IMG/VR virus record: IMGVR_UViG_3300025073_000608
Span: 41,076-105,075 of that record
Direction: 5' to 3' (one strand)
Source: a virus
Length of the DNA stretch: 64,000 nucleotides
The notes under the pieces are model-generated. The model did not search any database. It was not told where the DNA came from and was given only the letters and a program-made list of their open reading frames with translations. How positions within the stretch are numbered: position 1 is the stretch's first letter; each line of letters opens with the position of its first letter. The position numbers and the translations under genes were made by a program. Below, one piece after another: positions 18,934-47,659 of this stretch.

Positions 18934-18939
18934 AGACTT

Positions 18940-20151: not shown

Positions 20152-20160
20152 AAGGTTTCT

Positions 20161-22083
20161 TTATTTTAAATTTAAATCAAGTTTATCTTCTCCACCATGA
20201 TAGTAGGCGATATATCTTTGAGTAAGAGCATGGGGTAAATATGCGACATTAAAATATCCATTATGAGAAGAGTTTCCCTCAAGCCAAGTTAAGTTTTCCA
20301 TCATAGGATGATAATCAAGGCATTTATCCACAAACGGATTAGCAATTAAAATATCTTTAAATTGGGGCTTTGTCGCAACATATAAGGCCCAATCTGGGTA
20401 ACGGTCCTTAATAGATTTAAAAATAGAAGTCGTTAAAAACACATCTCCAGCACTCTCGGGCATAACAACTAATACTCTTCCTTTATCTTCTTTATTTAAA
20501 AGACAATCAAAAGTAAGGGGAGCAATTTGATTTTTTTGATTTTCAACGGTAGCTGTATGTCTAAAGAATTTTTCTATTTCTATCCTTGGGACGCCTTCTT
20601 TTATGCGAGCTATCCAATGTAAAAAACCTGGGTCGTCTTTACCAATAGGCATCTTTAATATGTTGTGATACATATGAATTAGCCAATCCCCATCATCTTT
20701 AATCTCAGGGATGGCTGCCTCTGGATTTTTTGCAGGAACATCTTCGATAAAACAAGAATCTTCGGCAAATGGAGCTGATTCAATAAATTCTTCTATTTGT
20801 TTTCCAATTATCTCTGTTGCGAAATTATCTATCGCCCATTGCCTAGATTTCTTTTCTAGTTCTCTTTTATTTTGGGGTTTTAATTTAAATACTTTTTCTA
20901 ATTGTTTGGCTATTGAAGCTGGATATGTAGAAGCCTTAATAAATTGAGTTCCTGGTTCTCTATATTCCGACCATTCTAATGGAAAAGACCCAGATTCTTC
21001 TACGCACAAATCTTCTCCGCAACTATAATTAGTAACCAAAGTTATCAATTCAGCCAATTTTGCTTCTTGGACAGGGATTTCTTGTCCCCCACTAGTAAAT
21101 GGATGGCAGTAAACATCCATAAGATTATATACTTCATTTAATTCTTGCTCAGAAATACCAAATGAAGGATGAGTAGTTATTTGTGACTTAGCAGTTCGAC
21201 AATGAGGACAATCTTGTTCTGTTGCTAATGGAGATTTTATTTCGTATTTTTTACAAGAACGACAAACAAAAGTCGTAAGAACGTTTTCTTTTTTAATTTC
21301 GTTTTCGTCTAAAAGTTTTGGAATATCCCAACCCTCTGTCCAGTTCGTATGTAATAAGAGTTTAGTTTTAATTTGAGGGTTTCTGTCAATAAATAATTTA
21401 TAACCCTGTAAAAGGTTAGGAACCGATTTCCTTAATTGGTTTCTAAACACAAAACCAATAACCCAAGTATTTTCATTAATATTATGTTGTTTTCGAAGAC
21501 TTTTCCTATTTTCCTCAGATAATCTATAAAATAATTTCGTAGCTAACGCTCCACGAATTGTTTTGACATGTTTATGTCCCATTTTGTGAAGGTCTTGCGT
21601 AGCGAAGTCAGCCCAAGACCAAAAATGTTTAATTTTAGAAGCTACTTCAACAGCTTTTGGAAGAATAGGGCGAGAATCTAACGTCGTCCATAAAGCGGCA
21701 GTAATTTTAGGAAACCATGCTTTTTCGGCGCAGAAATCAATTCCCCAAATATCTTGAATAGCAATAAATACATCTGGTTTTTCGCTTTTAACCGCAGCGT
21801 CTACCGAGAAAGCTCCGTATCCAGCCATTCTATCTATATTTTCCCAAGCCCTTGGGTCATTTTGCTTTTTTATTTCTTCTAATTGTGGCGGGAAAACAGT
21901 TGGGAGAGTTTTCCATGGGGTGCGCGATAAATCTGGAGAATTAACTGCGCCAACAGCCAAATTAACTAATTCATATTTATTGGTTAAATATAAATACTCC
22001 AATAAAGCTCTTGCATTTCTTCCAAAACCTGTTTTAGCTAACGGGTGGTCCGTTAGGATTAGAACCTTTTTTTTGCGACTCAT
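20161..22083 (-). CDS. GT4 glycosyltransferase with zinc ribbon, DUF4214 and GT9 N-terminal domain
   Basis: The 640-aa product starts with a GT-B fold (VLILTDHPLAKTGFGRNARAL). Its second half (VIGFVFRNQLRKSVPNLLQGY ... EVYNLMDVYCHPFTSGGQEIPVQEA, about residues 205-360) is typical of GT4. A CxxC...CxxC zinc ribbon (about residues 274-295) is inserted in that domain. Next comes a DUF4214-like segment (MYHNILKMPIGKDDPGFLHW...EIEKFF, about 475-515). A GT9 N-terminal Rossmann region (GRVLVVMPESAGDVFLTTSIF) then runs to the C-terminus and stops mid-domain at TAA. The remainder of GT9 continues in frame in the next gene. It starts 2 nt after the upstream stop with no Shine-Dalgarno sequence, implying coupling. 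Confidence 0.75.
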   Translation of the reverse strand: MSRKKKVLILTDHPLAKTGFGRNARALLEYLYLTNKYELVNLAVGAVNSPDLSRTPWKTLPTVFPPQLEEIKKQNDPRAWENIDRMAGYGAFSVDAAVKSEKPDVFIAIQDIWGIDFCAEKAWFPKITAALWTTLDSRPILPKAVEVASKIKHFWSWADFATQDLHKMGHKHVKTIRGALATKLFYRLSEENRKSLRKQHNINENTWVIGFVFRNQLRKSVPNLLQGYKLFIDRNPQIKTKLLLHTNWTEGWDIPKLLDENEIKKENVLTTFVCRSCKKYEIKSPLATEQDCPHCRTAKSQITTHPSFGISEQELNEVYNLMDVYCHPFTSGGQEIPVQEAKLAELITLVTNYSCGEDLCVEESGSFPLEWSEYREPGTQFIKASTYPASIAKQLEKVFKLKPQNKRELEKKSRQWAIDNFATEIIGKQIEEFIESAPFAEDSCFIEDVPAKNPEAAIPEIKDDGDWLIHMYHNILKMPIGKDDPGFLHWIARIKEGVPRIEIEKFFRHTATVENQKNQIAPLTFDCLLNKEDKGRVLVVMPESAGDVFLTTSIFKSIKDRYPDWALYVATKPQFKDILIANPFVDKCLDYHPMMENLTWLEGNSSHNGYFNVAYLPHALTQRYIAYYHGGEDKLDLNLK

Positions 22084-22085
22084 AA

Positions 22086-22631
22086 TTAAATATCTATTGT
22101 TTTAGACTTTGAATTATTGTTTTTATTCGCAGCTAAAGATGTTCTTTCTTCAAAGAAATGGTGAAGGGCAAACAATAGAAACTCTCTTAACAGTCTTGCT
22201 TCTCCAAAATTTAAACCTATATAGAAACTATTTTTATTAGTAGAGTCTTCCTTGTCAATTACAGAGATAGAGAAAGAAAATCCTTGCTGGCAGGCTTCTT
22301 TAATAACTGCTCCAGAGACATCTTTTTGAGCGGCTCCCATCCATGTAGTAAAAGATATATGTTTTGGTTTCAGTTCATTATCATGATATGTTTTGAAATC
22401 GCGATTTTTATCTAGACATTCTAAAATATGTCCGACTTCTATATCTGATAATTTAATATTAACGTGCTTTGTTGGGTCTTCTAAACTTGCTTTAAAAAGA
22501 CCGTTGTCTGCTTTTTCGTCCCATCCAGCTTGTTTAACAATAGTAGCAAAAACACACTTTTCTCTTATTGAAAACCAGAATGAACAGGCAAACCCCTTAT
22601 TAGTTTTAGTCGGATGGTATATATGAAACAT
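22086..22631 (-). CDS. Hypothetical protein, possibly ssDNA-binding
   Basis: The start is set at ATG 22631 (MFHIYHPTK), which has AAGG nine bases upstream and lies 22 nt from a good -10 box; a longer in-frame form would begin upstream of the promoter. The 181-aa product opens with FHIYHPTKTNKGFACSFWF, a beta-strand/basic pattern. It ends in an amphipathic helix (GEARLLREFLLFALHHFFE) and a Lys/Asn-rich tail. Strand-rich core, basic N-terminus and C-terminal helix resemble small phage ssDNA-binding proteins of PC4/Whirly type, but no diagnostic motif is visible. It is the first gene of the operon with the GT4/GT9 gene. Confidence 0.35.
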   Translation of the reverse strand: MFHIYHPTKTNKGFACSFWFSIREKCVFATIVKQAGWDEKADNGLFKASLEDPTKHVNIKLSDIEVGHILECLDKNRDFKTYHDNELKPKHISFTTWMGAAQKDVSGAVIKEACQQGFSFSISVIDKEDSTNKNSFYIGLNFGEARLLREFLLFALHHFFEERTSLAANKNNNSKSKTIDI

Positions 22632-22653
22632 AATGTATAACCTTGTGTAATTA

Positions 22654-22682
22654 ATAATATCATAAGATAAGGCAAAAGTCAA
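22654..22682 (-). promoter_or_regulatory. Sigma70-type promoter for the 22631-18946 operon
   Basis: The -35 TTGACT (22682-22677), a 17-nt spacer and the -10 TATTAT (22659-22654) lie in the 61-nt divergent gap. The predicted leader of about 16 nt includes AAGG before ATG 22631. No equally good promoter is seen for the divergent + strand gene at 22693. Confidence 0.65.
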
Positions 22683-30400: not shown

Positions 30401-32189
30401 CTTTTCAGCTCAAACTTATAGTATTTATTGTCGAGATAGAAGTGATGATTATCCATGTTATGATTATCAGTGTTTTAGAACTCCAGAAGATGATGATGGA
30501 ATTTTATTATTTAATAGTTCTCCAACAGGGACAGTTATTTGGGCTTCTTCATTAAGATATAATCCACTGGGATATACTGGTTCGTTACCTCTACCGTTTA
30601 CTAGCAGCTCTGTTATTCAGTATGCAAAAATAGGATATACTGGGAATCTCATTACTACTTTTAGAAGTGGAATGTATTTAGAATTTGATTTATCAACTTT
30701 ATTCCCAATTATTAATAAAACCTCATCTATCGGCGAATGGTATGATTCTTCAGGTATAACTATTGGTCCGTTTGATAGAGATGTAGAAATCGGTTTAATG
30801 TATCCTAATAGTGTGCAAGGATTTACTGACCTATATGTAAATAATAGAAAAGTTTCACAGATGTATGCTGATAATCCTAATTGCACTGACGACCCTACGA
30901 AAGAAAGTCAGTATATTATTAGTGGACTAAAATTAGAAGAAGGTGGAAGATATGCTAATTACTCTATTGTTTCAGTTATTAAGGCTGGTTATCCATTACA
31001 TATAAATGTTTATTCCAATCCAACGGTGGGTGGAGATGGATATATTGAAGATGGACATTTGGCAGAAACAAAAAAGGGAGTTCCTTCGGGCAAATTAACA
31101 CTTAAAGCAAGAAAAACCCTAAATGGAGAAAACTATCATCTTAATTTCCATAAAGGAGAACGTGATTGGTTAAATATCCATAATTTTCCTAATAATGGAC
31201 TAGAATTAAAATTTGTTATTCCACATTCTAATGGTTTTGAGGGACTCAAGGGTTCTCATACTTTTGTTACTTTTTCTAGAACAGGTAAACTTTATCCTCA
31301 ACCAGACGACGAAAGTCGGTTTACAGGCTATGGAAGAATAGACTCTTTTGATAATTTTATATATGATTCTTCAGATACCGTAGAAGAATATTGGTCTAAA
31401 AGATGTAGACAAAGACGACAGGGAATGGATATTAGCGGATATAGAGAGGGAGTAAGAATTTCATTTACTTTTAAAAATGTTTCTATAGAATATAAAGCTA
31501 TTCCATATGAAGATTTACATATTATTAATCCTTCTGGTTATTGTGTCGTCTCTGGAGAAATGGGGTATTTAGGTCAAGCCGATACAGCTATATTCACCGA
31601 GGGAATTATATTAGAAAATATTTCTTCGGGAGACGAACTCAAACCACTATATGACCCAGTATATATGTCCCCAGTTTTATCAAGATTAAACCCCAAATTT
31701 TTTATTGAACCAACTTCTACTACTAATCGTCCAGTATTAGAAGCGCCATCAATCATGAAACAAAGAAAACCAGGACTTAGAATTACAGATTACCAAGAAT
31801 ATAGTGGAATGTTTATGACATATCCAGAAAATTACAACAAACTTTTATGGCCAGCATTTAGTTCAATTGAGATTTTAAATCCTGGAGAAACCATAGAAAT
31901 AATGCCCCCTGACGACGGATTAACCTTTACTAATAGTGCTATGATTTTTTCCGCATCTAGGGGACAACCGTTACCTAATGGTTTAAAAAATCCAGATATA
32001 TCTAAACAATATGGAATATCTAATCAGTTTCAGATGTATGATTCTGTTTCAACTGATGCTATTATAAATAGTGGAAAATGTATAACTTCAGGAAGAGGAA
32101 CAAGGGTAACCCTTCAAGAAGATTTATTAAATAGTGCTTTCGCGACAGAAGGATTACCTATATGTTTAGTATCAAAAAATTTGATTTAA
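27438..32189 (+). CDS. Large unrecognised protein, probable virion component (1583 aa)
   Basis: It is preceded by GAGGAGAAGAAGGATAAAA, one of the strongest ribosome-binding sites in the window. The N-terminal ~130 residues are helical (ISAVYIRLAVLNKKGFRNKM; NIAAHAIIFGYCMIGAGGVKIS). The rest is beta-rich with Tyr/Asn/Gly/Ser strands and occasional TG/SG units (YTGYLLSGGG, TGSLPLP). No family, signal peptide or catalytic motif is recognised. It is only three residues longer than the upstream neighbour and has a similar aromatic/Asn-rich composition, so the pair may act together in the particle. Its TAA overlaps the stop of the convergent polymerase gene by 4 nt. Confidence 0.45.
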   Translation: MEDNGLRTIFGLSISAVYIRLAVLNKKGFRNKMCMAMAAGFNLGQDAGDDFYNYLQEDSDIENTVGFSQTSTYKNYESSMAYIINNYLPDNTENERELLNIAAHAIIFGYCMIGAGGVKISTLSKVIGQVLNNIGSIVFENSPFETTRTGEVIHPFSISAVESLLSNDYSSTIAYIATSDRNKESEVSNYNWYDTSKIFHQPNLQILKDIENQYYYVSGELLYDAIGDDVSDCVEDNVNIIGANGQPISFTYLRTVPCRDPKSYIGPVPNIKFHRIFNDGPPSSGDFNSDVKNAYIHFDKSGMPVSDWHHNRRTLYSYEVDNNGNNVKVTSSSVRTDSPGRIGLYQEYAKSPASMDCTNVAQSMHIGFTGSVIKCSDEVKCVTCASSNFTGWKFSPLFVSEEGLNKEDYQYFLANPVCNTGNISKRMLTIDSHNPIHNGTLVGDDLQTWNESFGKQYWYFGPPQPSEFSSLPALAFFQTFDNQTFGSRAKIVLFPSQTSSKGASYSSESSRSNSVSSFPIATGEDNNTYGYSENGARAKFYTKIGSAELNNRDEITKQFFSMGDFFEGKYSLVSKVLKNSHFEYTGYLLSGGGQIIELNNIIDSYQEDIIGDDVKTITFISGYLVNGQTVGLVKKIAFDESGIQREYYYLDNSFPETSNIKYTGWSSFSPLPEDMENEFPRIMATQSSDNYLPRFTSGPFNTENRKFLYPQALGANALYVGKLRGFPYKVKFNLEVREEVVKEIFGVYHINSDGTVSSNIKYIPVKRPDGLGGLAYPNNAPIMTKIFETNDVGWSSLDINNKKVDQPFQKRLGINLVNNQWAPLYKGFVPSGKNNTTFNLDADINTYFENGYYLTGYDVWTHKWFTGLDSEHYIYTYDLRPLSLGLFHAYDAFTDEVELIYTPPIFNINSGRLGMTPGINSTFADYYSQTCQITDNNDQRFDIETGKDPLFFEYIGGRQEELLNYGLYSASGQGGYHSREIIGDAWLGFSAQTYSIYCRDRSDDYPCYDYQCFRTPEDDDGILLFNSSPTGTVIWASSLRYNPLGYTGSLPLPFTSSSVIQYAKIGYTGNLITTFRSGMYLEFDLSTLFPIINKTSSIGEWYDSSGITIGPFDRDVEIGLMYPNSVQGFTDLYVNNRKVSQMYADNPNCTDDPTKESQYIISGLKLEEGGRYANYSIVSVIKAGYPLHINVYSNPTVGGDGYIEDGHLAETKKGVPSGKLTLKARKTLNGENYHLNFHKGERDWLNIHNFPNNGLELKFVIPHSNGFEGLKGSHTFVTFSRTGKLYPQPDDESRFTGYGRIDSFDNFIYDSSDTVEEYWSKRCRQRRQGMDISGYREGVRISFTFKNVSIEYKAIPYEDLHIINPSGYCVVSGEMGYLGQADTAIFTEGIILENISSGDELKPLYDPVYMSPVLSRLNPKFFIEPTSTTNRPVLEAPSIMKQRKPGLRITDYQEYSGMFMTYPENYNKLLWPAFSSIEILNPGETIEIMPPDDGLTFTNSAMIFSASRGQPLPNGLKNPDISKQYGISNQFQMYDSVSTDAIINSGKCITSGRGTRVTLQEDLLNSAFATEGLPICLVSKNLI

Positions 32190-34759
32190 ACTGTTGGGTC
32201 TTTTAATTCTGAAAGTTTTGTATAAATTACATTTTGTTGAACAGCAATTAAGCGGGCGAAAATAGTATCATCCCCCTTTTTCCTTCCGCTTACAATTACG
32301 ATATCTTCTTGTTTAGGAAGAACTCCATTTAAAGTTTTACATTCTTCAAGAGAATCATTAAAAATCATGACTTTAACGGTCCCTGTTTCGTCACTGATTT
32401 GATATTTGGCATATTTGCTTTTTCTAGCTGTCCTAGAAGTTCCAAGCGTAGGATTTTCATCAATATGACCAATAAAATCAACGTAAGAATCCTCTGGCAA
32501 TTCTAATATTTCATTAATGGGGGATAATGAACTTTTTTTGGATAAGAATATATCAATTAAGTGCTTGTCGGAAACATAACCCAATAATCGTTTTTCATAC
32601 CACCAGTTAGCGAAATCAGCACATACATCATTTAGTTCAAAAATATTTTTATATCTTTCTGAACCCTTTTTTATAGTTGCCATTCTTGAATCCTTGATTA
32701 AAGGTCGTCCTTTTTCATCTTTATGAACCTGATTTAACGCTTTAACAATGGGAATTAATTTATAATCATACTTTAAAGCTAAAGAAATAGCGTTTTGTTT
32801 TTCTTTCGGTTTAAGAAGGTTCCATAATTGAGCCTCATAGACTAAATATGCTCTTTTATCGCCAAATTTAGACAGTGTTCCAGCCTGAATAAGAGCGGAG
32901 AGGACTCCGATTGTTAGACCGGCTTCTTTCGCAGATTCAAATAATTCAAATTTATTGGCATGTTCTCGTTTAAAATTATTAAGTTTTTCAATTGTTTTTT
33001 CGGCAATGCCCTTAATAGAAGAAAGACCGAAACGAATATCTTTTCCTTCAATAGTAAATTTAATTTGGGAATAAGATAAGCTTGGAGAAAGCAATTTAAT
33101 ATTAAAATATTGCATTTCTTTATGGATTTTAGCTATTTCTCCTATGGGGTCAGGTTCATGTTGACTCATAGAAAGAAGAGACAAGAAGAAATTTGTTGGA
33201 TATTTGAATTTTAAGTAGACTGTTAAAGCAGCCAATGCAGCATAACTTACACTATGGCTCTTGTTGAATGAATAACTTGCCGAATCTTCCAAAATCTTCC
33301 ATAAGATTTCTCCTATTTCTTTATCAAGTCCTTGCTCTTTTACTTTTTCTTCAATTTTACTTTTCCATTTTTTAACTTCGTCAACTTTCTTTTTTCCTAC
33401 AATTCTCCTTAAAATTTCGGCTTCATCCAAGGTGAAACCAATTTTATTAGCCATTTTCATTAACTGCTCCTGATATAGGGCAACCCCACCAGTTTCTATT
33501 AAAATATCTTCAAAAAATGGATGAATACTGTCAATAGTTCCAGTTGTTGTATACAGAGCGAGCTTGTCAATAAATTGCATCGCACCAGGACGGGCGACAG
33601 CAAGAATAGCACTTAATTCTTGCATATTCTTTGGTTTAACTTTTTGGGTTGTTTTAAAGCATAGGTCAGCCTCTAATTGGAATAGACCTTGTGGGTATTT
33701 CAAACTTTGTAGGCTCTGATATATAATTGGGTCATTTAAATCTATGTCTTCGACCTTAATTCCTAATTGTTTACATATATCATCTACGACCGACACTCCA
33801 CGTAAACCCAAAGCATCTAACTTAACAGAAAATAATGACACCCAGTTCATGTCATAGGAAGAAACAATTTCCTTTTCTGAAGAAAGTTCTGTGGGGCAAG
33901 AATCTAGTAGGTTTCCATGAGTAATCATAATTCCTGATGGATGAACCCCCTTATTTTTAATAAGGTCTTTTAATTTTAAAGCTACAGAATAAACAAGACT
34001 ATGAGTATCACACCATTCTTTAAATTCTCCCACTTTTTCATAGGCAACATCTAAATCCTCCAAGATTCCATGCTGTTTAGGAATCATACTTGTAACATGA
34101 GTCATTTCTTCTTCTGGAACTCCACCTAGAATCTTACCGACCTCTTTAATAACCAATTTAGCTGATAAAGTATTAAATGTAAGAATCTTAGATGTTTTTC
34201 CGGCAAATTTCTTATCCAAATAAGCTAATACTTTTGGACGATTATAGTAGCAGATATCCAAATCCACATCGCACATTAACGAACCGTCTAAATAGGTAAT
34301 TCCGTCAAAGATTTGTTTTTTAGCTCTAATTTTAGACACGAATCTTTCAAAATAGAGTCCGTATTTAATAGGGTCTATTTTAGTGACACCAATAAGATAA
34401 AGGACAAGACTTCCTGCCGCGCTTCCTCGACCCAAACCAGTCGGAATATCATTTTCTTTACAATAATTAATGACATCCCATACTAATAATAGGTAATCAA
34501 CAAATCCTAATTCGGAAAGAATTCCAAGTTCGTGTTTAACTCTATCTCCATAAATTTGATAATTTGGGTTAGATTTAGATATTTTTAGTTTCTTAAACCC
34601 CTCAATACATAAAGCTCGAAGAAAATCATAATTAGATGTTCCTAATTTTAAACCAACTGCTTTTAAATATTTCTCTTCAATAGCGAATTCTGGAAGTCGA
34701 ACCCCAAGAATGGGAACCTCCATTGATTCAAAATCGTTTATAAATTCATTTACTTGCAT
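32186..34759 (-). CDS. dnaE: DNA polymerase III alpha, polymerase part (PHP domain encoded separately)
   Basis: The 857-aa protein is a bacterial C-family polymerase lacking its N-terminal PHP domain. GLGRGSAAGS (residues 108-117) is the DnaE palm signature. CDVDLDI (163-169) supplies the catalytic aspartates corresponding to the PDFDVDF motif, and KLDALGL (313-319) matches the third catalytic Asp region. A finger/HhH region follows (ILRRIVGKKK; SYSFNKSHSVSYA) and an OB-fold occupies about 755-845 (YVDFIGHI ... GTVKVMIFNDS). Full-length DnaE is about 1150 residues; the missing ~260 are encoded at 36294-37073, three genes upstream. It replicates the phage genome. It overlaps the upstream YopX-like gene by 10 nt. 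Confidence 0.92.
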   Translation of the reverse strand: MQVNEFINDFESMEVPILGVRLPEFAIEEKYLKAVGLKLGTSNYDFLRALCIEGFKKLKISKSNPNYQIYGDRVKHELGILSELGFVDYLLLVWDVINYCKENDIPTGLGRGSAAGSLVLYLIGVTKIDPIKYGLYFERFVSKIRAKKQIFDGITYLDGSLMCDVDLDICYYNRPKVLAYLDKKFAGKTSKILTFNTLSAKLVIKEVGKILGGVPEEEMTHVTSMIPKQHGILEDLDVAYEKVGEFKEWCDTHSLVYSVALKLKDLIKNKGVHPSGIMITHGNLLDSCPTELSSEKEIVSSYDMNWVSLFSVKLDALGLRGVSVVDDICKQLGIKVEDIDLNDPIIYQSLQSLKYPQGLFQLEADLCFKTTQKVKPKNMQELSAILAVARPGAMQFIDKLALYTTTGTIDSIHPFFEDILIETGGVALYQEQLMKMANKIGFTLDEAEILRRIVGKKKVDEVKKWKSKIEEKVKEQGLDKEIGEILWKILEDSASYSFNKSHSVSYAALAALTVYLKFKYPTNFFLSLLSMSQHEPDPIGEIAKIHKEMQYFNIKLLSPSLSYSQIKFTIEGKDIRFGLSSIKGIAEKTIEKLNNFKREHANKFELFESAKEAGLTIGVLSALIQAGTLSKFGDKRAYLVYEAQLWNLLKPKEKQNAISLALKYDYKLIPIVKALNQVHKDEKGRPLIKDSRMATIKKGSERYKNIFELNDVCADFANWWYEKRLLGYVSDKHLIDIFLSKKSSLSPINEILELPEDSYVDFIGHIDENPTLGTSRTARKSKYAKYQISDETGTVKVMIFNDSLEECKTLNGVLPKQEDIVIVSGRKKGDDTIFARLIAVQQNVIYTKLSELKDPTV

Positions 34760-35145
34760 AATTGTGGATTTTCGAAAATATTACCAATGATAGTTATCGG
34801 TTTGGATAATTTATTTCCAGCATAAGATTTTTTCTCTATTTCTTTTGTAAATCCTCTCCATCCTACGTGAATTGGGCACCATTTTACCATGTTGATAACA
34901 TCGAATCCTTCATTATCATCCCAATCATCATAATGATGAGTGGTTACAATATCTCCTTCGTAAATTTCTTTTCCATTTTTATCTACTAGGCCAGTAAATT
35001 GCTGGATACAAATAGATTTATTAAACTGTAAGTTTTTAAGATAACTATTTAAAGTTTGAGAATAAATGAATCCTAAATTCTCAAGAAATAAATCGTTTAT
35101 CCATCCTTTTAGATTAAAAGACCATATTCTAAATTTAATATTCAT
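34750..35145 (-). CDS. YopX-like protein
   Basis: The 131-aa product has the YopX-domain signature: IQQFTGLVDKNGKEIYEGDIV (about residues 49-68) and a C-terminal ITIIGNIFENPQL. YopX proteins are common in phages and prophages and have no established biochemical function. The start ATG overlaps the upstream exonuclease stop (ATGA), and the end overlaps the polymerase gene by 10 nt. It is one of three genes lying between the two parts of DNA polymerase III alpha. A role in replication is suggested only by that placement. Confidence 0.8.
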   Translation of the reverse strand: MNIKFRIWSFNLKGWINDLFLENLGFIYSQTLNSYLKNLQFNKSICIQQFTGLVDKNGKEIYEGDIVTTHHYDDWDDNEGFDVINMVKWCPIHVGWRGFTKEIEKKSYAGNKLSKPITIIGNIFENPQLCK

Positions 35146-35789
35146 AAATCCAATTGATATTTTAACTTATCCCAGACTTTTAAATTTAATAGCAAATCAT
35201 TAATCGCATGATGGAGTTGTTCGTAATCATGTTCTATTCCATATTCTTTTCCAAGAGCGGTAAGATTAGTTTTAATTCCCTTAACAACTGCATTTGCCAT
35301 TCTATATTGATACTCCAAAAAAGTTCCATCTGCTTTTCTATAAGGAATATTCATTTTAATTCCCTGAGCAACAGATTTAGTATCAATCACCTTGTTCATT
35401 ATGAATTTCCAATCGACACCCATCATTTCCGCGAATCCCTTTAATAAATATAAATCAAACCTAAGACCATTATGCATAATAATATAATCAGAATTTACAA
35501 GCATTGGCCAAAATATTTTAAAAGCCTCTTCTGGCAAGATAGCTAATTTTTCATGTTCTTCTGGATTGAATCTAGTAATTACTGCCGCCTCTCTGCCTAT
35601 AGATAAATGGGGGGAATCTGGCCATTTAACTCTAATATCTTGGGAGTCAATAATTTTATCTCCCTTAACCTGAATAATCCCAACTTGCCAAGGGCGATTA
35701 AATATAAAGTTAAGACATAAATTAAATGTCTCTAAATCAATAAAAGTAAATACTGATTTTTTATCATATCGTAATAGGTTATCTTCCAT
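35142..35789 (-). CDS. DnaQ-like 3'-5' exonuclease (DEDDh)
   Basis: The fold shows all DEDDh elements: FIDLETF (Exo I Asp/Glu), HNGLRFDLYLL (Exo II Asp) and HHAINDLLLN (Exo III His...Asp). I prefer the start at ATG 35789 (MEDNLLRYDKKS), one base after the upstream stop. A start at 35834 would add 15 poorly conserved-looking residues and overlap the upstream gene by 44 nt. At 215 residues it matches the catalytic part of the epsilon proofreading subunit. Lying between the PHP and polymerase genes of a C-family polymerase, proofreading for that polymerase is the likely job. Confidence 0.85.
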   Translation of the reverse strand: MEDNLLRYDKKSVFTFIDLETFNLCLNFIFNRPWQVGIIQVKGDKIIDSQDIRVKWPDSPHLSIGREAAVITRFNPEEHEKLAILPEEAFKIFWPMLVNSDYIIMHNGLRFDLYLLKGFAEMMGVDWKFIMNKVIDTKSVAQGIKMNIPYRKADGTFLEYQYRMANAVVKGIKTNLTALGKEYGIEHDYEQLHHAINDLLLNLKVWDKLKYQLDL

Positions 35790-35790
35790 A

Positions 35791-36297
35791 TTAAAAGGGT
35801 GGGTTGGAGTCGTCTGGGTCTGTTTTTGGTTCATTCGAAGGAACTACATCTAATTGACATATTACATTTTTTAATAAATCTCTATTTATGAGATATCCTT
35901 GGGTAGTCCATCCCTTATTACTGATAGCCTTTAATTTTAAATTAAATTGAGCAATAATATTTTCTAAGGCATTACATAATTCTTGCGTTTTAAACCAAAA
36001 AAATGTTCCATTGGAAATATAAAAATAAACAAAATATTCAACCCCATCAGAAAGGGCTCTCCATGGACCGCCTAAAGTTCCCTTATCTGAATCACTATAT
36101 AATTCCATAAAAAAGTTTTCAGTAGCTTCCATATTATATGTGTCGGTTTTTAACTCAATTTTGATTTTATCACCAAGTTCAAAATCCCACCGTTTATCTT
36201 CTGATAATTTGATATTTAAATTCTTATAAATTTGAGAAAAGATTAATTCTCCTGTTTTCCCAATAGGTAATTGTTCATTAAAGTCGAATATTTTCAT
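35791..36297 (-). CDS. Putative PD-(D/E)XK nuclease
   Basis: The 168-aa product contains GKTGELIFSQIYKNL (Glu on the first helix), then RWDFELG and IKIELKTD, which form the D...(D/E)XK core, within residues 13-52. That arrangement is typical of small phage and archaeal resolvase/endonuclease folds. The C-terminus is Pro/Asp/Ser-rich and unstructured (EPKTDPDDSNPPF). The ATG overlaps the stop of the PHP gene (ATGA). It is the first gene interrupting the split polymerase. A recombination or repair nuclease, or a Holliday-junction resolvase-like enzyme, is inferred; a homing-type nuclease is an alternative given the location. Confidence 0.55.
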   Translation of the reverse strand: MKIFDFNEQLPIGKTGELIFSQIYKNLNIKLSEDKRWDFELGDKIKIELKTDTYNMEATENFFMELYSDSDKGTLGGPWRALSDGVEYFVYFYISNGTFFWFKTQELCNALENIIAQFNLKLKAISNKGWTTQGYLINRDLLKNVICQLDVVPSNEPKTDPDDSNPPF

Positions 36298-37073
36298 GCG
36301 GTTTGATTATTTTTTAACCATCTTTTAAAATTAAATGTATTACTTCCCATGTGGTCTAGTTCAGGTCTTTCTACGGTCGATTTGGAAGAATGGCCTCGAT
36401 TATGGATACATCTAAAAGTGATATAAGCCAAAAAATCATCTTCATTTTTATAATAGATACTTTGAGCTGGCATGATTGGGAATTTCTTCGATGTAGTAAA
36501 GTCTATCACTCTATTTAATAATAGCGAATCAAAAGGCAAATTATTATCTTCTTGGAGAAAAACGGGAGAAGTAAAAGAAAAATCTGGAACGTGTTGGTGC
36601 GAATAAAAAGTATTTAAATAAAGAAAAGAATCATAAAATGGAACCACCAAAGAAAGATTATCTGTCCATAATTTTTTCAATTGTTTAAAATCTAAACATG
36701 GAGTATAATAAAATCCATCTTTCGCTGCAAAAGACCAAAGACGAAGTAGGTCTTTATAGCCATTTGGATTTTTAGCAAATATTATATATCTTGCCCGCTT
36801 TTTAAGCGAATCCTCATTTTGATTTAAACAATCTTCGGTAAAGAAGAGTCTTAAACCAAACATTAGTTTAATTTTATTTTCTTTGGCGTTTTTACTCGCT
36901 TGTAGTAAGCCACTAATATTATCATCAACCAATGGAAGAATTTTTAATTTATTAGCTACGAGAAGGTCAAAAATAGAAACAGGATAAGATTCTTTACAAG
37001 TCGGAGCTTCTAAAGTTAGGATACTTTTACCCAAACTAAAGTGACTTTTAAACAACGGCAATGTAGAATACAT
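36294..37073 (-). CDS. Stand-alone PHP domain of DNA polymerase III alpha
   Basis: The 259-aa protein matches the DnaE N-terminal PHP domain in order: HFSLGKSILTLEAP, ILPLVDDNISGLLQASKNAKENKIKLMFG, then ARYIIFAKNPNGYKDLLRLWSFA and FPIMPAQSIYYKNEDDF. Most metal-binding His/Asp residues of an active PHP site are missing (the usual HxH is reduced to SH, and TDH is VDD), so it is probably structural. It ends where the polymerase gene at 34759 would continue, after a gap of three genes. It starts at or next to the predicted transcription start of its own promoter, so the mRNA would be leaderless. Confidence 0.8.
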   Translation of the reverse strand: MYSTLPLFKSHFSLGKSILTLEAPTCKESYPVSIFDLLVANKLKILPLVDDNISGLLQASKNAKENKIKLMFGLRLFFTEDCLNQNEDSLKKRARYIIFAKNPNGYKDLLRLWSFAAKDGFYYTPCLDFKQLKKLWTDNLSLVVPFYDSFLYLNTFYSHQHVPDFSFTSPVFLQEDNNLPFDSLLLNRVIDFTTSKKFPIMPAQSIYYKNEDDFLAYITFRCIHNRGHSSKSTVERPELDHMGSNTFNFKRWLKNNQTA

Positions 37074-37079
37074 ATGTAT

Positions 37080-37108
37080 ATGTTAAGTTTTTCTTATCCA
37101 AAAGTCAA
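37080..37108 (-). promoter_or_regulatory. Sigma70-type promoter for PHP/polymerase operon, leaderless
   Basis: The -35 TTGACT (37108-37103), a 17-nt spacer and the -10 TAACAT (37085-37080) are followed by 6 nt to ATG 37073. It lies in a 38-nt gap within a - strand gene array. The -10 matches the consensus at only 4 of 6 positions. Confidence 0.5.
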
Positions 37109-37111
37109 GAG

Positions 37112-38164
37112 TTAAAAGTTGAAATCGTCCAAAACATTTCTTTTTATAACAGGGGGTTGAGGTTTAATATTTATGTCTAACGCTGGAGAGAAAAAGGCTG
37201 GACAACCAGCATATTGTTCTAGTTTAATTTCTAATGCTATATCTTTTGGAATTTCTTCTATGGTAAAAAACGTCTTTTCTTTCCCGTCTTTCATTTTTAC
37301 ACGATAATATTGAAATGGAAATTTATATGGACAATGCCACATTTTTGTTCCATCTTTTTTTAATTGTCCTGGTTTTTTAGCATAGCCACAAACCACCTTT
37401 CCTTTAAATTCATTTGGAGAGGGTTCAATGTGAGCGGCAAAATTTTTCATGGCATCATATTTATTAAAAAATAATACCTTTTTTTCTATTTCTTCTAAAT
37501 AAAACTCTAGTCCTTTTAAAGCATTGTCAGTAAATTTTAATTCCATAATCGGACTATCTGGATACTGTAGAAAAATAAATCTGACTCTTGGCGATAGATG
37601 TGGCCAAAGTTTTTTCGCTGCAAGACTATAAATTAGTGCTTGAAGATTAGATTCTTGGTCTTCTCCTTCAAATTTTTTCTTAGAAGATTTAAAATCATCT
37701 ATAATTATTTCATTACCGACAATAACTGGCTTATCCATAAATCCTTTAATTCTATAACAAGGTGATTCGTTGGATAAATCAAATTCAAATTCTGGAGCTA
37801 CTAATTTCCCATTTTTAATAAAAAAATCATTTTTTAGTCCGACCATAATCATTTGGTCTATCATAACTAATAATTCTTTAGTTAGAGAAAGTTTTAATTT
37901 TCTTATATGGTGAAGAACCATTCGATAAACAGCTTTACTTCCAATAATAGAATTTTCTTTAATTATCTGTTTATAATGTTTTTTATGTTTCTTTTTTAAC
38001 AAGACCTCAAAAACAGAATGACAAATAGAACCCTTTTTTGCTCCTTCATTTTGAATTTGAGGTAGTTGAATATGGTAATTTGCCCAATATTGCCAAGAAC
38101 ATTGGTCTAAAAGTTTTGTTCGAGAAGCGGATAATCCTATTAAAGGGGTAGGTTTGTCTTCCAT
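37112..38164 (-). CDS. PD-(D/E)XK exonuclease, Cas4/AddB-like
   Basis: The 350-aa protein starts with GLSASRTKLLDQCSWQYWANY, the Cys-containing helix of the Cas4/RecB-nuclease family. GAKKGSICHSVFEVLL follows, then the nuclease core (about residues 150-175: IIIDDFKSSKK, with Asp and the QALIYSLAAKKLW Gln motif). C-terminal cysteines (VVCGYAKK...MWHCPYKF) with the first Cys could hold an iron-sulphur cluster, as in AddB/Cas4. It probably resects DNA ends for recombination. It overlaps the primase gene by 25 nt and is followed by the leaderless promoter of the PHP gene. Confidence 0.75.
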   Translation of the reverse strand: MEDKPTPLIGLSASRTKLLDQCSWQYWANYHIQLPQIQNEGAKKGSICHSVFEVLLKKKHKKHYKQIIKENSIIGSKAVYRMVLHHIRKLKLSLTKELLVMIDQMIMVGLKNDFFIKNGKLVAPEFEFDLSNESPCYRIKGFMDKPVIVGNEIIIDDFKSSKKKFEGEDQESNLQALIYSLAAKKLWPHLSPRVRFIFLQYPDSPIMELKFTDNALKGLEFYLEEIEKKVLFFNKYDAMKNFAAHIEPSPNEFKGKVVCGYAKKPGQLKKDGTKMWHCPYKFPFQYYRVKMKDGKEKTFFTIEEIPKDIALEIKLEQYAGCPAFFSPALDINIKPQPPVIKRNVLDDFNF

Positions 38165-39039
38165 AAATTTATTTCTTCGACAGTCATATCTCCAAAATCT
38201 TTTAAAGTAGGTAATGAAATTAGAATTTGAGATTCATCAAAAAACTTAGAAAGAAATTTTTTACCGTTTTCACTAGCTATATTTCCTATAAAGTTATTAT
38301 CTTTGTCGTTATTTAACGCTAAAACGATTTTATTAACATCTAATTTAATAAGAGAGGTAACAATACTAGAACTAATATCTATACCAAATAACACTAAAAC
38401 ATTTTTTATTTCAGCCTCCCACAAAGCTAACATATCCCCGATACTCTCTACTAAAATTACATATTTATTTTTGATGATTTCTGGTTTATTAAATATTAAA
38501 GGGTAACTCCATTTTGATTTACTCCCTAGAAGTTTCCATTTAGGATTAAAATTTTGTAGGGCTCTGCCGCTAAATCCTACTAGGTCATGTCTTTCATTAA
38601 AAATAGGAAAAACATACCTATTCATAAGTTTGCCCTTTATTGCTACTCCCCCACTGAAAATTTCCAAAGTCTCATTACTTATTCCTCGATTATTCCAATA
38701 AGAATTATCTTTTAATAATCTAACCAGACAATCCTTAGAGAATATTTCTTGTTCTTGAATTTCGACTTGATGACTAACTACTGGTTGAAAAGATTGGACT
38801 TTATTTAAATCATCTACGGACAAAATAGAAGTGCCGGTAGAATGAAGGTGAATAAACTGAAGAAGCTTTCCCCCAGTATTTGTCCCAAAATCATACCAAT
38901 CACCAGTAGTTTTATCTATAGATAGAGATGTCGGGTTATCTGAATCTCTATATAATGGTTTTGTGCGAAAATATTGACCATTATCTATTAATTGAGAATA
39001 ACCAATTTTATGAAGAACATCCTTAATACTTTCAATCAT
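38140..39039 (-). CDS. DNA primase (DnaG-type, TOPRIM)
   Basis: The 299-aa product has an N-terminal region like the primase zinc-binding/RNAP-basal part (FRTKPLYRDSDNPTSLSIDKTTGDWYDFG...GGKLLQFIHL) but without zinc cysteines. Next comes LMNRYVFPIFNERHDLVGFSGRAL, the DnaG catalytic core signature. A TOPRIM domain follows (YVILVESIGDMLALWEA, about residue 190, and IVLALNNDKDNN). It is shorter than cellular DnaG (about 580 aa), lacking the helicase-binding C-terminus. It lies directly after DnaB with an ATGA overlap, as expected for a primase-helicase pair making lagging-strand primers. Confidence 0.88.
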   Translation of the reverse strand: MIESIKDVLHKIGYSQLIDNGQYFRTKPLYRDSDNPTSLSIDKTTGDWYDFGTNTGGKLLQFIHLHSTGTSILSVDDLNKVQSFQPVVSHQVEIQEQEIFSKDCLVRLLKDNSYWNNRGISNETLEIFSGGVAIKGKLMNRYVFPIFNERHDLVGFSGRALQNFNPKWKLLGSKSKWSYPLIFNKPEIIKNKYVILVESIGDMLALWEAEIKNVLVLFGIDISSSIVTSLIKLDVNKIVLALNNDKDNNFIGNIASENGKKFLSKFFDESQILISLPTLKDFGDMTVEEINLWKTNLPL

Positions 39040-40520
39040 AATGTTTCTTCTCTAATACCAACACTATCCGTTACCAGAAATTGAGAATTTTGTCTTTGAA
39101 TAGCATCGTGGACAGTTCCTCGTTCTTCAATATTAAAATTACTTATCTCAAAATTAAGGTAATTTCTTACATATTTTCTGCTTCCATCTGGGAATTCTCG
39201 TAATACTAAGTCCCTATGTCCAGCAGCCTCTCTTCCTTGATATCGAGCTTTAATTTCTACGAGTTTATGGGTTCCGCTATCCAGAGTATCTAATACTATT
39301 TCATCTTCTGTTTTTCTTCTCAAAATAGCTAAGTATGTAGCAAACCACGCTAATCTATCAGAAATGGCAATAGCAGAAGCATCATCAACTACATTTGCCG
39401 ATGTTCTTCCAGAATTCTCTCCAGTTCTATTAATTTGAATAGCGGAAAAAATGGGTAAATCTAATTCTAGGGCTATTCTTTTTAATTTATCTACCTTTTC
39501 TCCTAACACTTGATATTCAGCCCAATTTTGTCCTACCTTTTCCGTTGTGAGTTTTAAATAATCGTAAATAATAATAGCCTTGTTACCTCTACCAACGATT
39601 TTATAATACCATCTTCTCATAATGGCCATTACTTCATCTATATGCTTATTGCCAACATGATAATGATAAGTCTTATATTTACTTTTTAGAGATGGAAGAA
39701 TTTTTCTTACTTTTTCTACCATATCTGCATTTTTTCTCCAATTTCCGGTTTCTAGATACCATAATGGGACACCAGAGAATGCTGCGGCTGTTCTTAATTT
39801 AATTTCTTTAGAAACCATTTCTGTATCTAATATTAGGGCTGGAACATTATTAATTCTGCCCGTTTCACAGGCTAAATGGTTGAGCCAAGTAGTTTTTCCT
39901 TGCCCAGCTCTAGATGCCACGGCATATACATTTCCGCCTCTAAGGCCACCATACATTCGGTTAAAATCATTAAATGGAGTTAATAGTCCTATTTCTTCGT
40001 TAGGATTATTCCCTAATGATTCAATCATTTCATAAACATCAGAAAATAAATCATCTGGCTCGTCTTCAATAGAAAAAGAAGATACTTTATCTCCGTATAA
40101 AGCATCAACTTCGGCAATAGTTTGTTCTAGAGGATTATTAGATGATTTTTCTAAGTGTTGTTGAATCTTATTACAGGTATGACTTAATTCTCTAAGAGCT
40201 TTTAATTTGGATAATTCTTGACAAGCTTTGAATGTTGCTTTTGGAGTAATACTAGAGAATGATATAGCATCAATATAATCAAAGATATTAATTTTGTCTT
40301 TGAAAGAGATTCCCAATCCTGTTATTTTTTGGGCAAGAAGAACTTTATCGACATTTTCACTAGCAAGGATAATCTGTTTTAAGCAGGAAAAAATAACTCC
40401 ATGAGGTTCAGCTACGAAATCTTTTTCTGAAATAAATCCGATAACATCTATCATGATGTTTGGATTCTGAATTAAACCTCCTAAAACGTGTTTTTCTATT
40501 TGAAGAGAATGAAGGGCCAT
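39036..40520 (-). CDS. dnaB: Replicative DNA helicase, DnaB type
   Basis: The 494-aa protein has the DnaB N-terminal helical domain (SLQIEKHVLGGLIQNP...EKDFVAEPHGVIF). The RecA-like motor domain follows: Walker A SRAGQGKTTW (Lys near residue 209), Walker B AIIIYDYLKL, and the H3-like IFSAIQINRTGENSGRTSANVVDDASAIAISD region. It unwinds the template ahead of the C-family polymerase and recruits the adjacent primase. The start ATG is within a few bases of the predicted transcription start of a strong-looking promoter, so translation may be leaderless. Length matches the family. Confidence 0.93.
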   Translation of the reverse strand: MALHSLQIEKHVLGGLIQNPNIMIDVIGFISEKDFVAEPHGVIFSCLKQIILASENVDKVLLAQKITGLGISFKDKINIFDYIDAISFSSITPKATFKACQELSKLKALRELSHTCNKIQQHLEKSSNNPLEQTIAEVDALYGDKVSSFSIEDEPDDLFSDVYEMIESLGNNPNEEIGLLTPFNDFNRMYGGLRGGNVYAVASRAGQGKTTWLNHLACETGRINNVPALILDTEMVSKEIKLRTAAAFSGVPLWYLETGNWRKNADMVEKVRKILPSLKSKYKTYHYHVGNKHIDEVMAIMRRWYYKIVGRGNKAIIIYDYLKLTTEKVGQNWAEYQVLGEKVDKLKRIALELDLPIFSAIQINRTGENSGRTSANVVDDASAIAISDRLAWFATYLAILRRKTEDEIVLDTLDSGTHKLVEIKARYQGREAAGHRDLVLREFPDGSRKYVRNYLNFEISNFNIEERGTVHDAIQRQNSQFLVTDSVGIREETL

Positions 40521-40525
40521 AGTAG

Positions 40526-40557
40526 ATTATACTAGAATAAGACTGCCTCATTGTCAA
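40526..40557 (-). promoter_or_regulatory. Promoter for helicase-primase genes, near-leaderless
   Basis: The -35 TTGACA is at 40557-40552. A TAGTAT box (40534-40529) at 17-nt spacing and a perfect TATAAT (40531-40526) at 20-nt spacing overlap. Either places the transcription start within about 2 nt of ATG 40520. The gap between genes here is only 39 nt. Confidence 0.55.
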
Positions 40558-44926: not shown

Positions 44927-46105
44927 TCACTTAATATTATTGAGAATATTAAGTAGATTGTCTATTTTTTCTTTAGTTAAAGAAGGATAATTTCCGATAT
45001 ACCATGAAAAATGATGGATAAATTCCATTCGGGGAAAATCTTCCTCGTTTATTTTAACGATAGATTTTAAATATGGTTGTTTTAATTGACTCCCGCCGCC
45101 AGAAAGTCCCCTTCTAAATTCTATACCATTTTTATTTAATGTTTTTTCTATCTTATCTCTTAATTTAAAACTTCCATTTCTTAGGATAACAATAAAAGCA
45201 TAATTACATTGTCCTTGTAAATTTAACTCTTTATGATATAAATCTGGTCTTAAACCATCATAAAAGTATTTAAAGTTTTCTTGTCTTAGTTTATTATTTG
45301 AGTCTAATTTTTTAAGTTGAGATAATCCTAATACTGCATTAATTTCTGTACTTCTAAAATTATGAGATGGAGCAATGAATACAAAGTCTTGATTAAGAGT
45401 AGGATTTTCTTTTAGTATTTGTTTTTTAAATACTTCATGTGTTGATTCCCTTAACATCCCATGGGAACGCAAACACCTTAATACTTCATAGAATTTACGA
45501 TTATTAGTACAAACCATTCCTCCCTCAATGGTGGACATATGATGAGCAAAATAAAAACTAAAATTACTAGCAAATCCAAAAGAACCACATTTTTTATTCT
45601 TAAATGTTGTTCCATGACTTTCACATACATCTTCTATTAATAAAATATCGTTTTCTTTACATATATCTAAAATCCGTTGAGATAGTCCGTTTATACCCAA
45701 AACATGAGTTAGGAAAATAGCTTTGGTAGAAGGGGTAATTAATTTAAAAAGTTTTTGCTCGTCAAAAGAAAGATTTCCAAAATTAATATCACAAAAAACG
45801 GGCTTCATATTCGCATGAATAACCGCAGAAATATCGCTGACCCACGTTAACGGAGGAACAATAACCTCTCCAACCCCATAAAGATATTTAATAGCTAACA
45901 TTGTTAACTCATTTGCTGAACTTCCAGAATTAACAAATAAGCTGTATTTCACCCCAAGCCACTTAGACCATTCTTTTTCAAATTCTAATACTTTTGGGCC
46001 ATTAGTAAGTTTCGGTATAGGTCTTTGAGAGAGAAATTCTTGAATACATTGAATATCTTGTTCGTCAATATTTTCCGCCATTAATGGATGATTAATTTGA
46101 TTCAT
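44927..46105 (-). CDS. ColD-like GDP-4-keto-6-deoxymannose 3-dehydratase
   Basis: The 392-aa protein is of the DegT/StrS PLP fold (VNSGSSANEL, VIVPPLTWVSD, IEDVCESHG). The Schiff-base lysine is replaced: the motif reads SFYFAHHMSTIEGG with His188/His189. The His replacement is the hallmark of 3-dehydratases such as ColD (GDP-sugar) and E1/RfbH (CDP-sugar). The GDP version is favoured because GMD and an Fcl/ColC-type enzyme flank it, and I see no E1-type iron-sulphur cysteine pattern. It would remove the C3 hydroxyl from GDP-4-keto-6-deoxy-D-mannose using PLP and glutamate. Length matches ColD. Confidence 0.82.
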   Translation of the reverse strand: MNQINHPLMAENIDEQDIQCIQEFLSQRPIPKLTNGPKVLEFEKEWSKWLGVKYSLFVNSGSSANELTMLAIKYLYGVGEVIVPPLTWVSDISAVIHANMKPVFCDINFGNLSFDEQKLFKLITPSTKAIFLTHVLGINGLSQRILDICKENDILLIEDVCESHGTTFKNKKCGSFGFASNFSFYFAHHMSTIEGGMVCTNNRKFYEVLRCLRSHGMLRESTHEVFKKQILKENPTLNQDFVFIAPSHNFRSTEINAVLGLSQLKKLDSNNKLRQENFKYFYDGLRPDLYHKELNLQGQCNYAFIVILRNGSFKLRDKIEKTLNKNGIEFRRGLSGGGSQLKQPYLKSIVKINEEDFPRMEFIHHFSWYIGNYPSLTKEKIDNLLNILNNIK

Positions 46106-46106
46106 A

Positions 46107-47009
46107 TTATTTTCTGATATTAGGATAATTATTTAAATACCATTCAATGGTTTTTTCTATTCCATTTTCAATTGACGTAAATGGGAAGTCATTTAATGAT
46201 AATAGCTTATTTCCGCTTAAACGTCTAATTTTCTGTCCAGATGGTTTAGTGGTATCAAACTCTAATTTATTTTCTATTCCGAACGCACGAGCTATTAAAG
46301 TTGCAATATATTTTATTTTAATAGTCTGATTATTACAAAAGATTAATGGTTCTTTATCGTTATAATATTCTAAAGCCCATTCAGTTAATTTTGCCACGTC
46401 ATCTACATATAAAAATTCTCGTTCTTGTTCTCCATCACCCCAAACAGAAAAAGAGGTATCATTTAATTTCGCTTGATGAGCTTTATATATTAATACTCCT
46501 ATTACATGTCCGGTTTCTAGATTAAAATCATCATTTGGGCCATAAATATTAGTTGGAATAATACAATTATAAATTAATCCATGTTCTTCATAGCAAATAC
46601 GACTTTGTATTTCTAGCATTCTTTTCGCGAATCCATAAGGATAATGGACTTGCGCCGGAAATCCAATATGTAAATCTTCTTCTTTATAAGGTCTATTTAT
46701 TTCTTCTGAAAAAATACATGAAGATAAAAACGATAATACTCTTGGGACATGCATGTTTTTACATGCTTCCAAAACATTAGTATTAATTAAAATATTATCG
46801 TAGAATAACTTATATTTTTGTTCGATATGAAATTTTAATCCCCCAACCTTTGCAGCACAATGAACAACCGCATCTGGGCGATGAGACATAAACAAGAGGT
46901 TGCATTGGTCTTTATCTCTTAAATCATATTCGTGAGAAGAAAAACCTATTCCAAAGTTTAAGTTCTGACCAACTGTTCCAGTTTTTCCAGTTATTAGTAT
47001 TTTTTTCAT
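46107..47009 (-). CDS. GDP-L-fucose synthase family, probable GDP-L-colitose synthase (ColC-like)
   Basis: The 300-aa extended SDR has TGKTGTVGQNL (nucleotide-binding), HCAAKVGGL, the YPYGFAKRMLE Tyr/Lys pair, IPTNIYGPNDDFNLETGHVI, GDGEQEREFLYVDD and KPSGQKIRRL. These are all signatures of the Fcl/WcaG 3,5-epimerase-4-reductase. Adjacent to a ColD-like dehydratase it probably acts as ColC, performing the 5-epimerisation and 4-reduction that yield GDP-L-colitose. If the neighbour is not ColD, GDP-L-fucose would be the product. It overlaps the SGNH gene by 4 nt (ATGA) and ends one base before the ColD-like start. Confidence 0.82.
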   Translation of the reverse strand: MKKILITGKTGTVGQNLNFGIGFSSHEYDLRDKDQCNLLFMSHRPDAVVHCAAKVGGLKFHIEQKYKLFYDNILINTNVLEACKNMHVPRVLSFLSSCIFSEEINRPYKEEDLHIGFPAQVHYPYGFAKRMLEIQSRICYEEHGLIYNCIIPTNIYGPNDDFNLETGHVIGVLIYKAHQAKLNDTSFSVWGDGEQEREFLYVDDVAKLTEWALEYYNDKEPLIFCNNQTIKIKYIATLIARAFGIENKLEFDTTKPSGQKIRRLSGNKLLSLNDFPFTSIENGIEKTIEWYLNNYPNIRK

Positions 47010-47647: not shown

Positions 47648-47659
47648 ACTTCATATCTT

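What the first reader, a model, noticed from the sequence alone, without database searches (positions are those of the whole stretch)
32186..37073. DNA polymerase III alpha split by three inserted genes
The PHP domain (36294-37073) and the polymerase body (32186-34759) are separate genes. They break between PHP and palm with little missing, and are separated by a PD-(D/E)XK nuclease, a DEDDh exonuclease and a YopX gene. The exonuclease looks like the matching proofreader. The PHP piece has lost most metal ligands and has its own leaderless promoter. This suggests a trans-assembled C-family phage replicase.
Basis: partly seen in the sequence, partly recalled or inferred. Interest (0 to 1): 0.72.

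Follow-up and report, generated by a model that had tools for sequence, protein, structure and literature searches.

The report
Phage DNA polymerase in two genes
A widespread, uncultured group of phages encodes its copying enzyme (a bacterial-type DNA polymerase III) as separate genes, with an inactive PHP domain as its own protein next to a proofreading nuclease, which could let the role of that puzzling domain be tested directly.

Summary
Window 36294-37073 (-) encodes a complete DnaE-type PHP domain and 32186-34759 (-) encodes the rest of a DnaE-type replicase up to the OB fold. Predicted structures map them onto E. coli Pol III alpha residues 3-251 and 255-910, so the cut is clean. No other family A, B or C polymerase was found in the 105-kb record.

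The reading "split by three inserted genes" is wrong. In 106 of 106 distinct IMG/VR loci and 7 of 7 MAG contigs holding all three genes, PHP, exonuclease and polymerase are separate, in that order, on one strand. Only the DEDDh exonuclease is constant between them. The polymerases form one clade, so the split is old and maintained. The PHP has lost most metal ligands in all 64 sequences compared; exonuclease and polymerase active sites are intact.

Best explanation: a non-covalent replicase in which PHP is a dead scaffold joining polymerase and proofreader. Assembly is inferred, not shown. Splits near this junction exist elsewhere (Microbacterium cluster EF phages, already noted in print; Bacillus phage vB_BpsS-140), so this is a new variant of a known kind. 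The leaderless promoter is supported; it heads PHP-exo-pol, and a second one heads the helicase gene.

The parts
32186..34759 (-). DnaE-type polymerase chain without PHP (palm, thumb, fingers, HhH, OB; 857 aa); ends after the OB fold, no room for a tau-binding C-terminal domain
   Evidence: Pfam and PHROG matches; model pLDDT 85 aligns to E. coli alpha 255-910; catalytic D164, D166, K313, D315 present in 33 of 33 aligned sequences
34750..35145 (-). YopX-family gene (131 aa), sporadic neighbour, not part of the conserved module
   Evidence: Pfam PF09643 9.5e-16; among 106 distinct loci found between exo and pol only here and in L012; in L008 it lies upstream of PHP
35142..35834 (-). DEDDh (DnaQ-like) 3'-5' exonuclease, 230 aa, likely proofreader
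   Evidence: PHROG 192 1.2e-15; D33 E35 D127 H208 D213 in 109 of 109 sequences; PDB match PolC-type exonuclease 2p1j 7.6e-6
35791..36297 (-). 168-aa gene of unknown family with a conserved D..ELK motif, sporadic neighbour
   Evidence: no significant Pfam or PHROG match; alignment with two relatives; a blast cluster of 12 loci of 106 holds such relatives
36294..37073 (-). stand-alone DnaE-type PHP domain (259 aa), degenerate metal site
   Evidence: Pfam PF02811; model pLDDT 89.8, Z 23.8 to DnaE chains against at most 12.2 for free PHP phosphoesterases; ligands lost across 64 of 64 sequences
37074..37108 (-). leaderless-type sigma70-like promoter: -35 TTGACT 37108-37103, 17-base spacer, -10 TAACAT 37085-37080, 6 bases to ATG
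   Evidence: sequence, scan, conserved upstream of PHP in relatives
37112..38164 (-). PD-(D/E)XK superfamily nuclease, conserved gene upstream of PHP (context)
   Evidence: Pfam PF12705 8.6e-14; same place in relatives
38140..39039 (-). DnaG-type primase (context)
   Evidence: Pfam DNAG_N and Toprim_2, PHROG 47
39036..40520 (-). DnaB-type helicase (context)
   Evidence: Pfam DnaB_C, PHROG 19
40521..40557 (-). second leaderless-type promoter: TTGACA-20-TATAAT-5-ATG before the helicase
   Evidence: conserved at helicase starts, 45 of 68 with at most 3 mismatches

Best explanation
This is a DnaE-type DNA polymerase III alpha subunit encoded as two polypeptides. The PHP domain and the palm-to-OB body fold separately and bind non-covalently at the old PHP-palm interface. 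The PHP has lost its metal site and acts as a structural part of the polymerase and as the docking point for the separately encoded DEDDh exonuclease, which proofreads. Shown here: gene identities, the clean cut, separation and order across the clade, intact polymerase and exonuclease residues, degenerate PHP site, a conserved promoter ahead of PHP-exo-pol. Inferred: binding of PHP to the polymerase, binding of exonuclease to PHP (perhaps by its conserved aromatic C-terminal tail), use as the phage replicase, and co-transcription.
For: PHP maps to alpha 3-251 and pol to 255-910. In four fused gut-phage homologues, alignment places the end of PHP and the start of pol within about five residues of each other. 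PHP, exo and pol are separate ORFs in that order in 106 of 106 distinct IMG/VR loci and 7 of 7 MAG contigs. The 36 sampled pols are one side of a branch (100/99). 0 of 12 records have a family A or B polymerase; 8 of 8 have exactly one PF07733 match and exactly one PHP match. Exo DEDDh residues 109 of 109, pol acidic residues 33 of 33. PHP ligands replaced in a fixed way: E to R/K 64 of 64, H to K/R 64 of 64, C site deleted 64 of 64. Exo C-terminus is aromatic-Q-x-E-like (aromatic in 105 of 109); in E. coli epsilon, Trp241 of the C-terminal segment sits in a pocket of the PHP domain (PMC3919608, passages). In E. coli, mutations in the dead PHP site lower Pol III stability and activity, and PHP loss goes with a separate exonuclease (PMC3666897, abstract).
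Against: No complex was predicted or measured. Distance correlations do not single out PHP-pol (0.939) from pol with helicase (0.949) or PD-(D/E)XK (0.944), so they give no support. A minimal split Pol III alpha without PHP is reported in other jumbo phages (PMC7824862, passages), so a pol without PHP may be workable. All contigs are uncultured and classed as linear, so an unseen second polymerase is possible. The exo tail resembles epsilon's only in having a C-terminal aromatic. No clamp (PF02768) or clamp-loader (PF13177) gene was found in 12 records and no clear clamp motif was seen in pol, so how processivity is gained is open.
Confidence: 0.72

Rival explanations
1. The PHP protein has left the polymerase and serves only the exonuclease or another partner; the 857-aa chain replicates without it.
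For: Clade-specific invariant residues such as PFYDS at 145-149 replace the old ligand region, which could mark a new surface; PHP-less Pol III cores are reported in other jumbo phages (PMC7824862).
Against: Full-length PHP with the whole DnaE-type fold is kept. In the 106 loci and 7 MAG contigs it keeps its place beside exo and pol, though loci were taken as having all three genes, so losses would not show in that count.
Confidence: 0.15
2. The PHP gene is a decaying relic of a former fused polymerase.
For: Metal ligands are lost.
Against: Median identity 54 percent over the whole length across 61 loci, fixed replacement residues, an own conserved promoter.
Confidence: 0.05
3. The pieces are rejoined into one chain by an intein, trans-splicing or frameshifting.
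For: Split inteins do seem to occur elsewhere in the pol of some relatives; naturally split DnaE inteins exist in cyanobacteria (recalled).
Against: Neither the end of PHP nor the start of pol carries intein-like sequence (read by eye); the exonuclease gene lies between.
Confidence: 0.03
4. It is a broken-up PolC gene, whose exonuclease lies inside PHP.
For: Gene order PHP-exo-pol; the exo profile's only PDB hit is a PolC-type exonuclease.
Against: PHP and pol fit DnaE better than PolC (Z 23.8 against 19.7; 39.8 against 28.6); the OB fold is C-terminal as in DnaE, whereas PolC has it N-terminal (PMC3919608, passages); PHP is not interrupted.
Confidence: 0.03

Closest known systems
Bacterial DnaE1 (Pol III alpha) with separate DnaQ epsilon, as in E. 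coli
   Same: Same fold and domain order for PHP, palm-thumb-fingers, HhH, OB; degenerate PHP with separate DEDDh proofreader
   Different: PHP is a separate gene; no tau-binding C-terminal domain; exonuclease gene lies between the pieces
Microbacterium cluster EF phages (AnnaSerena, Krampus) and their relative Tedro
   Same: Two adjacent genes related to Pol III alpha, PHP piece 345 aa and pol piece 766 aa in Tedro; two genes noted for cluster EF in PMC7302621
   Different: No exonuclease between them; Tedro's pol groups with the fused one of Mycobacterium phage Gumball (100/100), so a separate fission; cut about 25 residues further on
Bacillus phage vB_BpsS-140 (one record, region left unannotated)
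   Same: PHP and pol in separate ORFs of 363 and 852 aa
   Different: ORFs overlap, no exo between; may be a sequencing frameshift; lies elsewhere in the tree, on a long branch
Jumbo phage group 2.2 minimal split Pol III alpha (PMC7824862)
   Same: Pol III alpha encoded as more than one protein
   Different: Split inside the catalytic core, distant genes, no PHP, accompanies a family B polymerase (passages)
Pbunavirus and Wifcevirus DnaE with adjacent exonuclease gene
   Same: DnaQ-like exonuclease gene next to DnaE
   Different: Pol chain long enough to hold the N-terminal part; exo lies upstream of the whole gene

Membership tests
DnaE-type C-family DNA polymerase | catalytic acidic residues of the palm | tested here: met
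   D164, D166, D315 in 33 of 33
DnaE-type C-family DNA polymerase | PHP, palm, thumb, fingers, HhH in one chain | tested here: not met
   PHP is a separate ORF here and in 106 of 106 loci; all these domains are present in total
DnaE-type C-family DNA polymerase | OB fold C-terminal to HhH | tested here: met
   residues 744-845 match OB folds (Z 13.0); Pfam PF01336 1.3e-4, below cut-off
DnaE-type C-family DNA polymerase | C-terminal tau-binding domain | tested here: not met
   chain ends at residue 857; the OB fold ends about 845
DnaE-type C-family DNA polymerase | clamp-binding motif | tested here: inconclusive
   no QxxLF-like motif seen by eye between HhH and OB in alignment A2; no assay or profile run
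PHP family (PF02811) | match above gathering score and fold | tested here: met
   34.3 bits against 26.4; Z 23.8
PHP family, active metal site | HHDHEH[C/H]DH ligands (signature from PMC12926913) | tested here: not met
   only the first H (60 of 64) and an acidic residue at the D position (64 of 64) kept
DnaQ-like DEDDh exonuclease | D, E, D, H, D active residues | tested here: met
   109 of 109
Pol III epsilon subunit | binds alpha through a C-terminal segment | not testable with these tools
   conserved aromatic-Q-x-E-like tail is only suggestive
PolC | exonuclease inserted in PHP, OB at the N-terminus | tested here: not met
   separate intact PHP, C-terminal OB
Split-intein DnaE | intein halves at the break | tested here: not met
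   none seen at the PHP/pol break (by eye)

The most novel reading that the evidence does not exclude
In a large, so far uncultured phage clade the PHP domain of the replicase is a permanent, detachable subunit: a metal-free scaffold that links a free DEDDh proofreader to the polymerase in trans, so that proofreading could be loaded or withheld at the fork. Some members go further and build the replicase from three polymerase-derived genes, two of them predicted to be spliced by a split intein.
Probability: 0.4. Interest if true: 0.72.

Novelty: new variant of a known kind. Interest (0 to 1): 0.55.

Why it matters
PHP is strictly kept in bacterial replicases even where it is catalytically dead, and why is not fully understood (PMC3666897, abstract). 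A natural system in which PHP is a separate protein would let it be added, left out or swapped in a polymerase assay without cutting a protein. It also shows that the PHP-palm junction tolerates fission and that the arrangement has been kept through wide divergence.

Tried and rejected
Broken PolC: rejected, DnaE fits better and the OB fold is C-terminal. Rejoining by intein at the PHP/pol break: no intein sequence seen there. Second polymerase: none of family C, A or B in the records searched, though all are possibly fragments. Phage-coded clamp or clamp loader: 0 of 12 for PF02768 and PF13177. Mirror-tree correlation: does not discriminate. Isolates carrying this exonuclease: none at E 0.01 in 50,697 phage records. 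Link between the window's 87-aa gene and the 75-aa exo-pol ORF family: no profile match at a useful E-value. P1201: first noted as a PHP/pol split because gp60 is annotated phosphoesterase; the profile search placed PHP in the gp59 pol ORF, so that note was wrong. Papers: searches gave no description of this clade's PHP-exo-pol arrangement; subscription papers and preprints are not in that library.

Limits of sampling: only the best 80 of 508 PHP hits and 80 of 154 pol hits were fetched, all chosen by likeness to this clade. The phage survey covers 23 hand-picked loci, most of them from the 1293 records matching the pol query.

Full report
What is there. The window is part of a 105,075-base IMG/VR virus record (window = 41076-105075). 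On the minus strand a replication block runs helicase (39036-40520), primase, PD-(D/E)XK nuclease, PHP (36294-37073), a 168-aa gene, a DnaQ-like exonuclease, a YopX gene, polymerase (32186-34759). A large-terminase gene is in the part of the record to the left of the window, so this is a tailed phage. Of ten genes tested on the left side of the window, nine have no PHROG match.

The cut is clean. The PHP model (pLDDT 89.8, pTM 0.89) aligns over residues 1-259 to DnaE chains: E. coli alpha 3-251 in 2hnh, Z 22.9; Thermus DnaE 5-262 in 3e0d, Z 23.8. Free PHP phosphoesterases reach Z 12.2 at most. The polymerase model (pLDDT 85.2, pTM 0.79) aligns from residue 1 to E. coli alpha 255-910 in 2hnh, Z 35.1. 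In four fused gut-phage homologues (L170, L171, L172, L175) the aligned end of PHP and start of pol lie within about five residues of each other.

The split is old and general in this clade. Searches of IMG/VR found 508 PHP relatives and 154 pol relatives; the best 80 of each were kept, after 8 from a first search. Of 106 distinct loci holding PHP, exo and pol, 106 have three separate ORFs in that order on one strand. Fused PHP-pol ORFs appeared only in three gut-phage records fetched from the phage collection. Seven contigs binned in bacterial or archaeal MAGs, at 33-42 percent PHP identity, show the same order, 7 of 7. In 50 pol cores, the 36 sampled clade members form one side of a branch with 100/99 support; some outgroup branches are long and the root is unknown.

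Three inserted genes? No. Among the 106 loci, PHP and exo are within 60 bases in 44, exo and pol in 26, both in 9. The ORFs in the gaps vary: between PHP and exo, small families in 19, 12, 12, 6 and fewer loci (one of the 12-locus clusters holds relatives of the 168-aa gene); between exo and pol, a 75-aa family in 67. YopX lies between exo and pol only here and in L012. The exonuclease alone is constant.

State of the active sites. The exonuclease keeps D33, E35, D127, H208 and D213 in 109 of 109 sequences; the polymerase keeps D164, D166, K313 and D315 in 33 of 33. At the PHP ligand positions, 64 clade sequences against four fused homologues give: first H kept in 60; second H to S in 64; D to E or D in 64; H to D in 58; E to R or K in 64; H to K or R in 64; C position deleted in 64; D to S or T in 64; H to Y or F in 64. 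This depends on one alignment, least sure at the N-terminal motif. Positive residues at two former ligand positions suggest a metal-free, charge-balanced core (inference). A dead PHP with a separate exonuclease is the pattern described for bacteria (PMC3666897, abstract).

Promoter. Upstream of PHP, 76 of 109 starts have a TTGACA/TATAAT-like site ending 3-9 bases before the start codon with at most 3 mismatches, against 10.9 in simple two-base block shuffles; helicase starts 45 of 68 against 5.8; primase 2 of 89, PD-(D/E)XK 3 of 99, exo 12 of 106, pol 3 of 98. So there are probably two leaderless units, helicase-primase-nuclease and PHP-exo-pol. In this window alone the PHP site has 3 mismatches, no better than several other starts. 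Start codons were chosen by profile, and no transcripts were seen.

How it most likely works. PHP and pol bind at the former intramolecular interface; PHP stabilises pol and holds the exonuclease. The exonuclease ends in a conserved aromatic (105 of 109), usually followed by Q (88 of 109), with E or D next to last (101 of 109). In E. coli, epsilon Trp241 of the C-terminal segment sits in a PHP pocket (PMC3919608, passages). That likeness is a lead, not a test.

Comparison. Of 23 phage loci examined, 20 have PHP (or an N-terminal stretch of its size) joined to the start of the palm, some of them broken further downstream; 2 are split near the PHP-palm junction (Tedro; vB_BpsS-140); 1 (Listeria phage contig) starts inside the gene and cannot be judged. 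[quoted passage not shown] Tedro's pol groups with the fused one of Gumball at 100/100, so the fission happened more than once. PMC7824862 describes a different split without PHP (passages). What is new here, within the papers searched, is a large clade that keeps the split with the proofreader gene between the pieces.

A further break in some relatives. In four contigs (L008/L013, L022, L077, L197) the pol is also cut at FNK|SHS, with an intein-like N half ahead of the break and an intein-like C half of about 37 residues ending TSN after it (read by eye). In L008 the N piece carries NUMOD4 and HNH (Pfam); the intein splicing model matches only below cut-off. These would be split inteins of the kind already reported in phage genes (PolB of phage MIJ3, PMC6892783, passages). 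Splicing is inferred.

What is not shown. No binding, no activity, no host, no finished genome. The distance correlations were uninformative. The window's record and its relatives may be fragments.

Noticed in passing
L008:8001-12163, L022:7630-10632, L077:3726-6701, L197:7608-10592: Pol genes cut at FNK|SHS by what look like split intein halves; in L008 the N half carries NUMOD4/HNH endonuclease motifs.
   Followed up: partly
between exo and pol in 67 of 106 loci, e.g. L032, L034, L036: A conserved ORF of about 75 aa with an acidic tail, no Pfam or PHROG match of note; could be a small replicase subunit. Absent at that place in this window.
   Followed up: partly
gap between PHP and exo, over 60 bases in 62 of 106 loci: Hotspot for varied small genes, several with nuclease-like motifs, two families matching PHROG 18407 of unknown function, and one cupin-like family (by eye) in 12 loci.
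   Followed up: partly
window 35142-35834, C-terminus: Exonuclease family ends in aromatic-Q-x-E-hydrophobic; candidate PHP-binding tail.
   Followed up: partly
window 6221-22682 and the left part of the record: Most large genes, presumably many of them virion genes, match no PHROG or Pfam family; the terminase is recognisable, so the lineage is poorly described.
   Followed up: no
window 44927-62965: Long run with nucleotide-sugar epimerases, aminotransferase, glycosyltransferase and dTDP-sugar epimerase genes, probably glycan modification.
   Followed up: no
L065:7021-9619 and L028:7716-9404: Other pol breaks: an overlapping two-ORF break near residue 142 in L065 and an early stop near residue 557 in L028; frameshift or contig error not excluded.
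   Followed up: no
L188:4785-8392 (Bacillus phage vB_BpsS-140): Unannotated PHP and pol ORFs, overlapping; possible further natural fission or a sequencing frameshift.
   Followed up: partly
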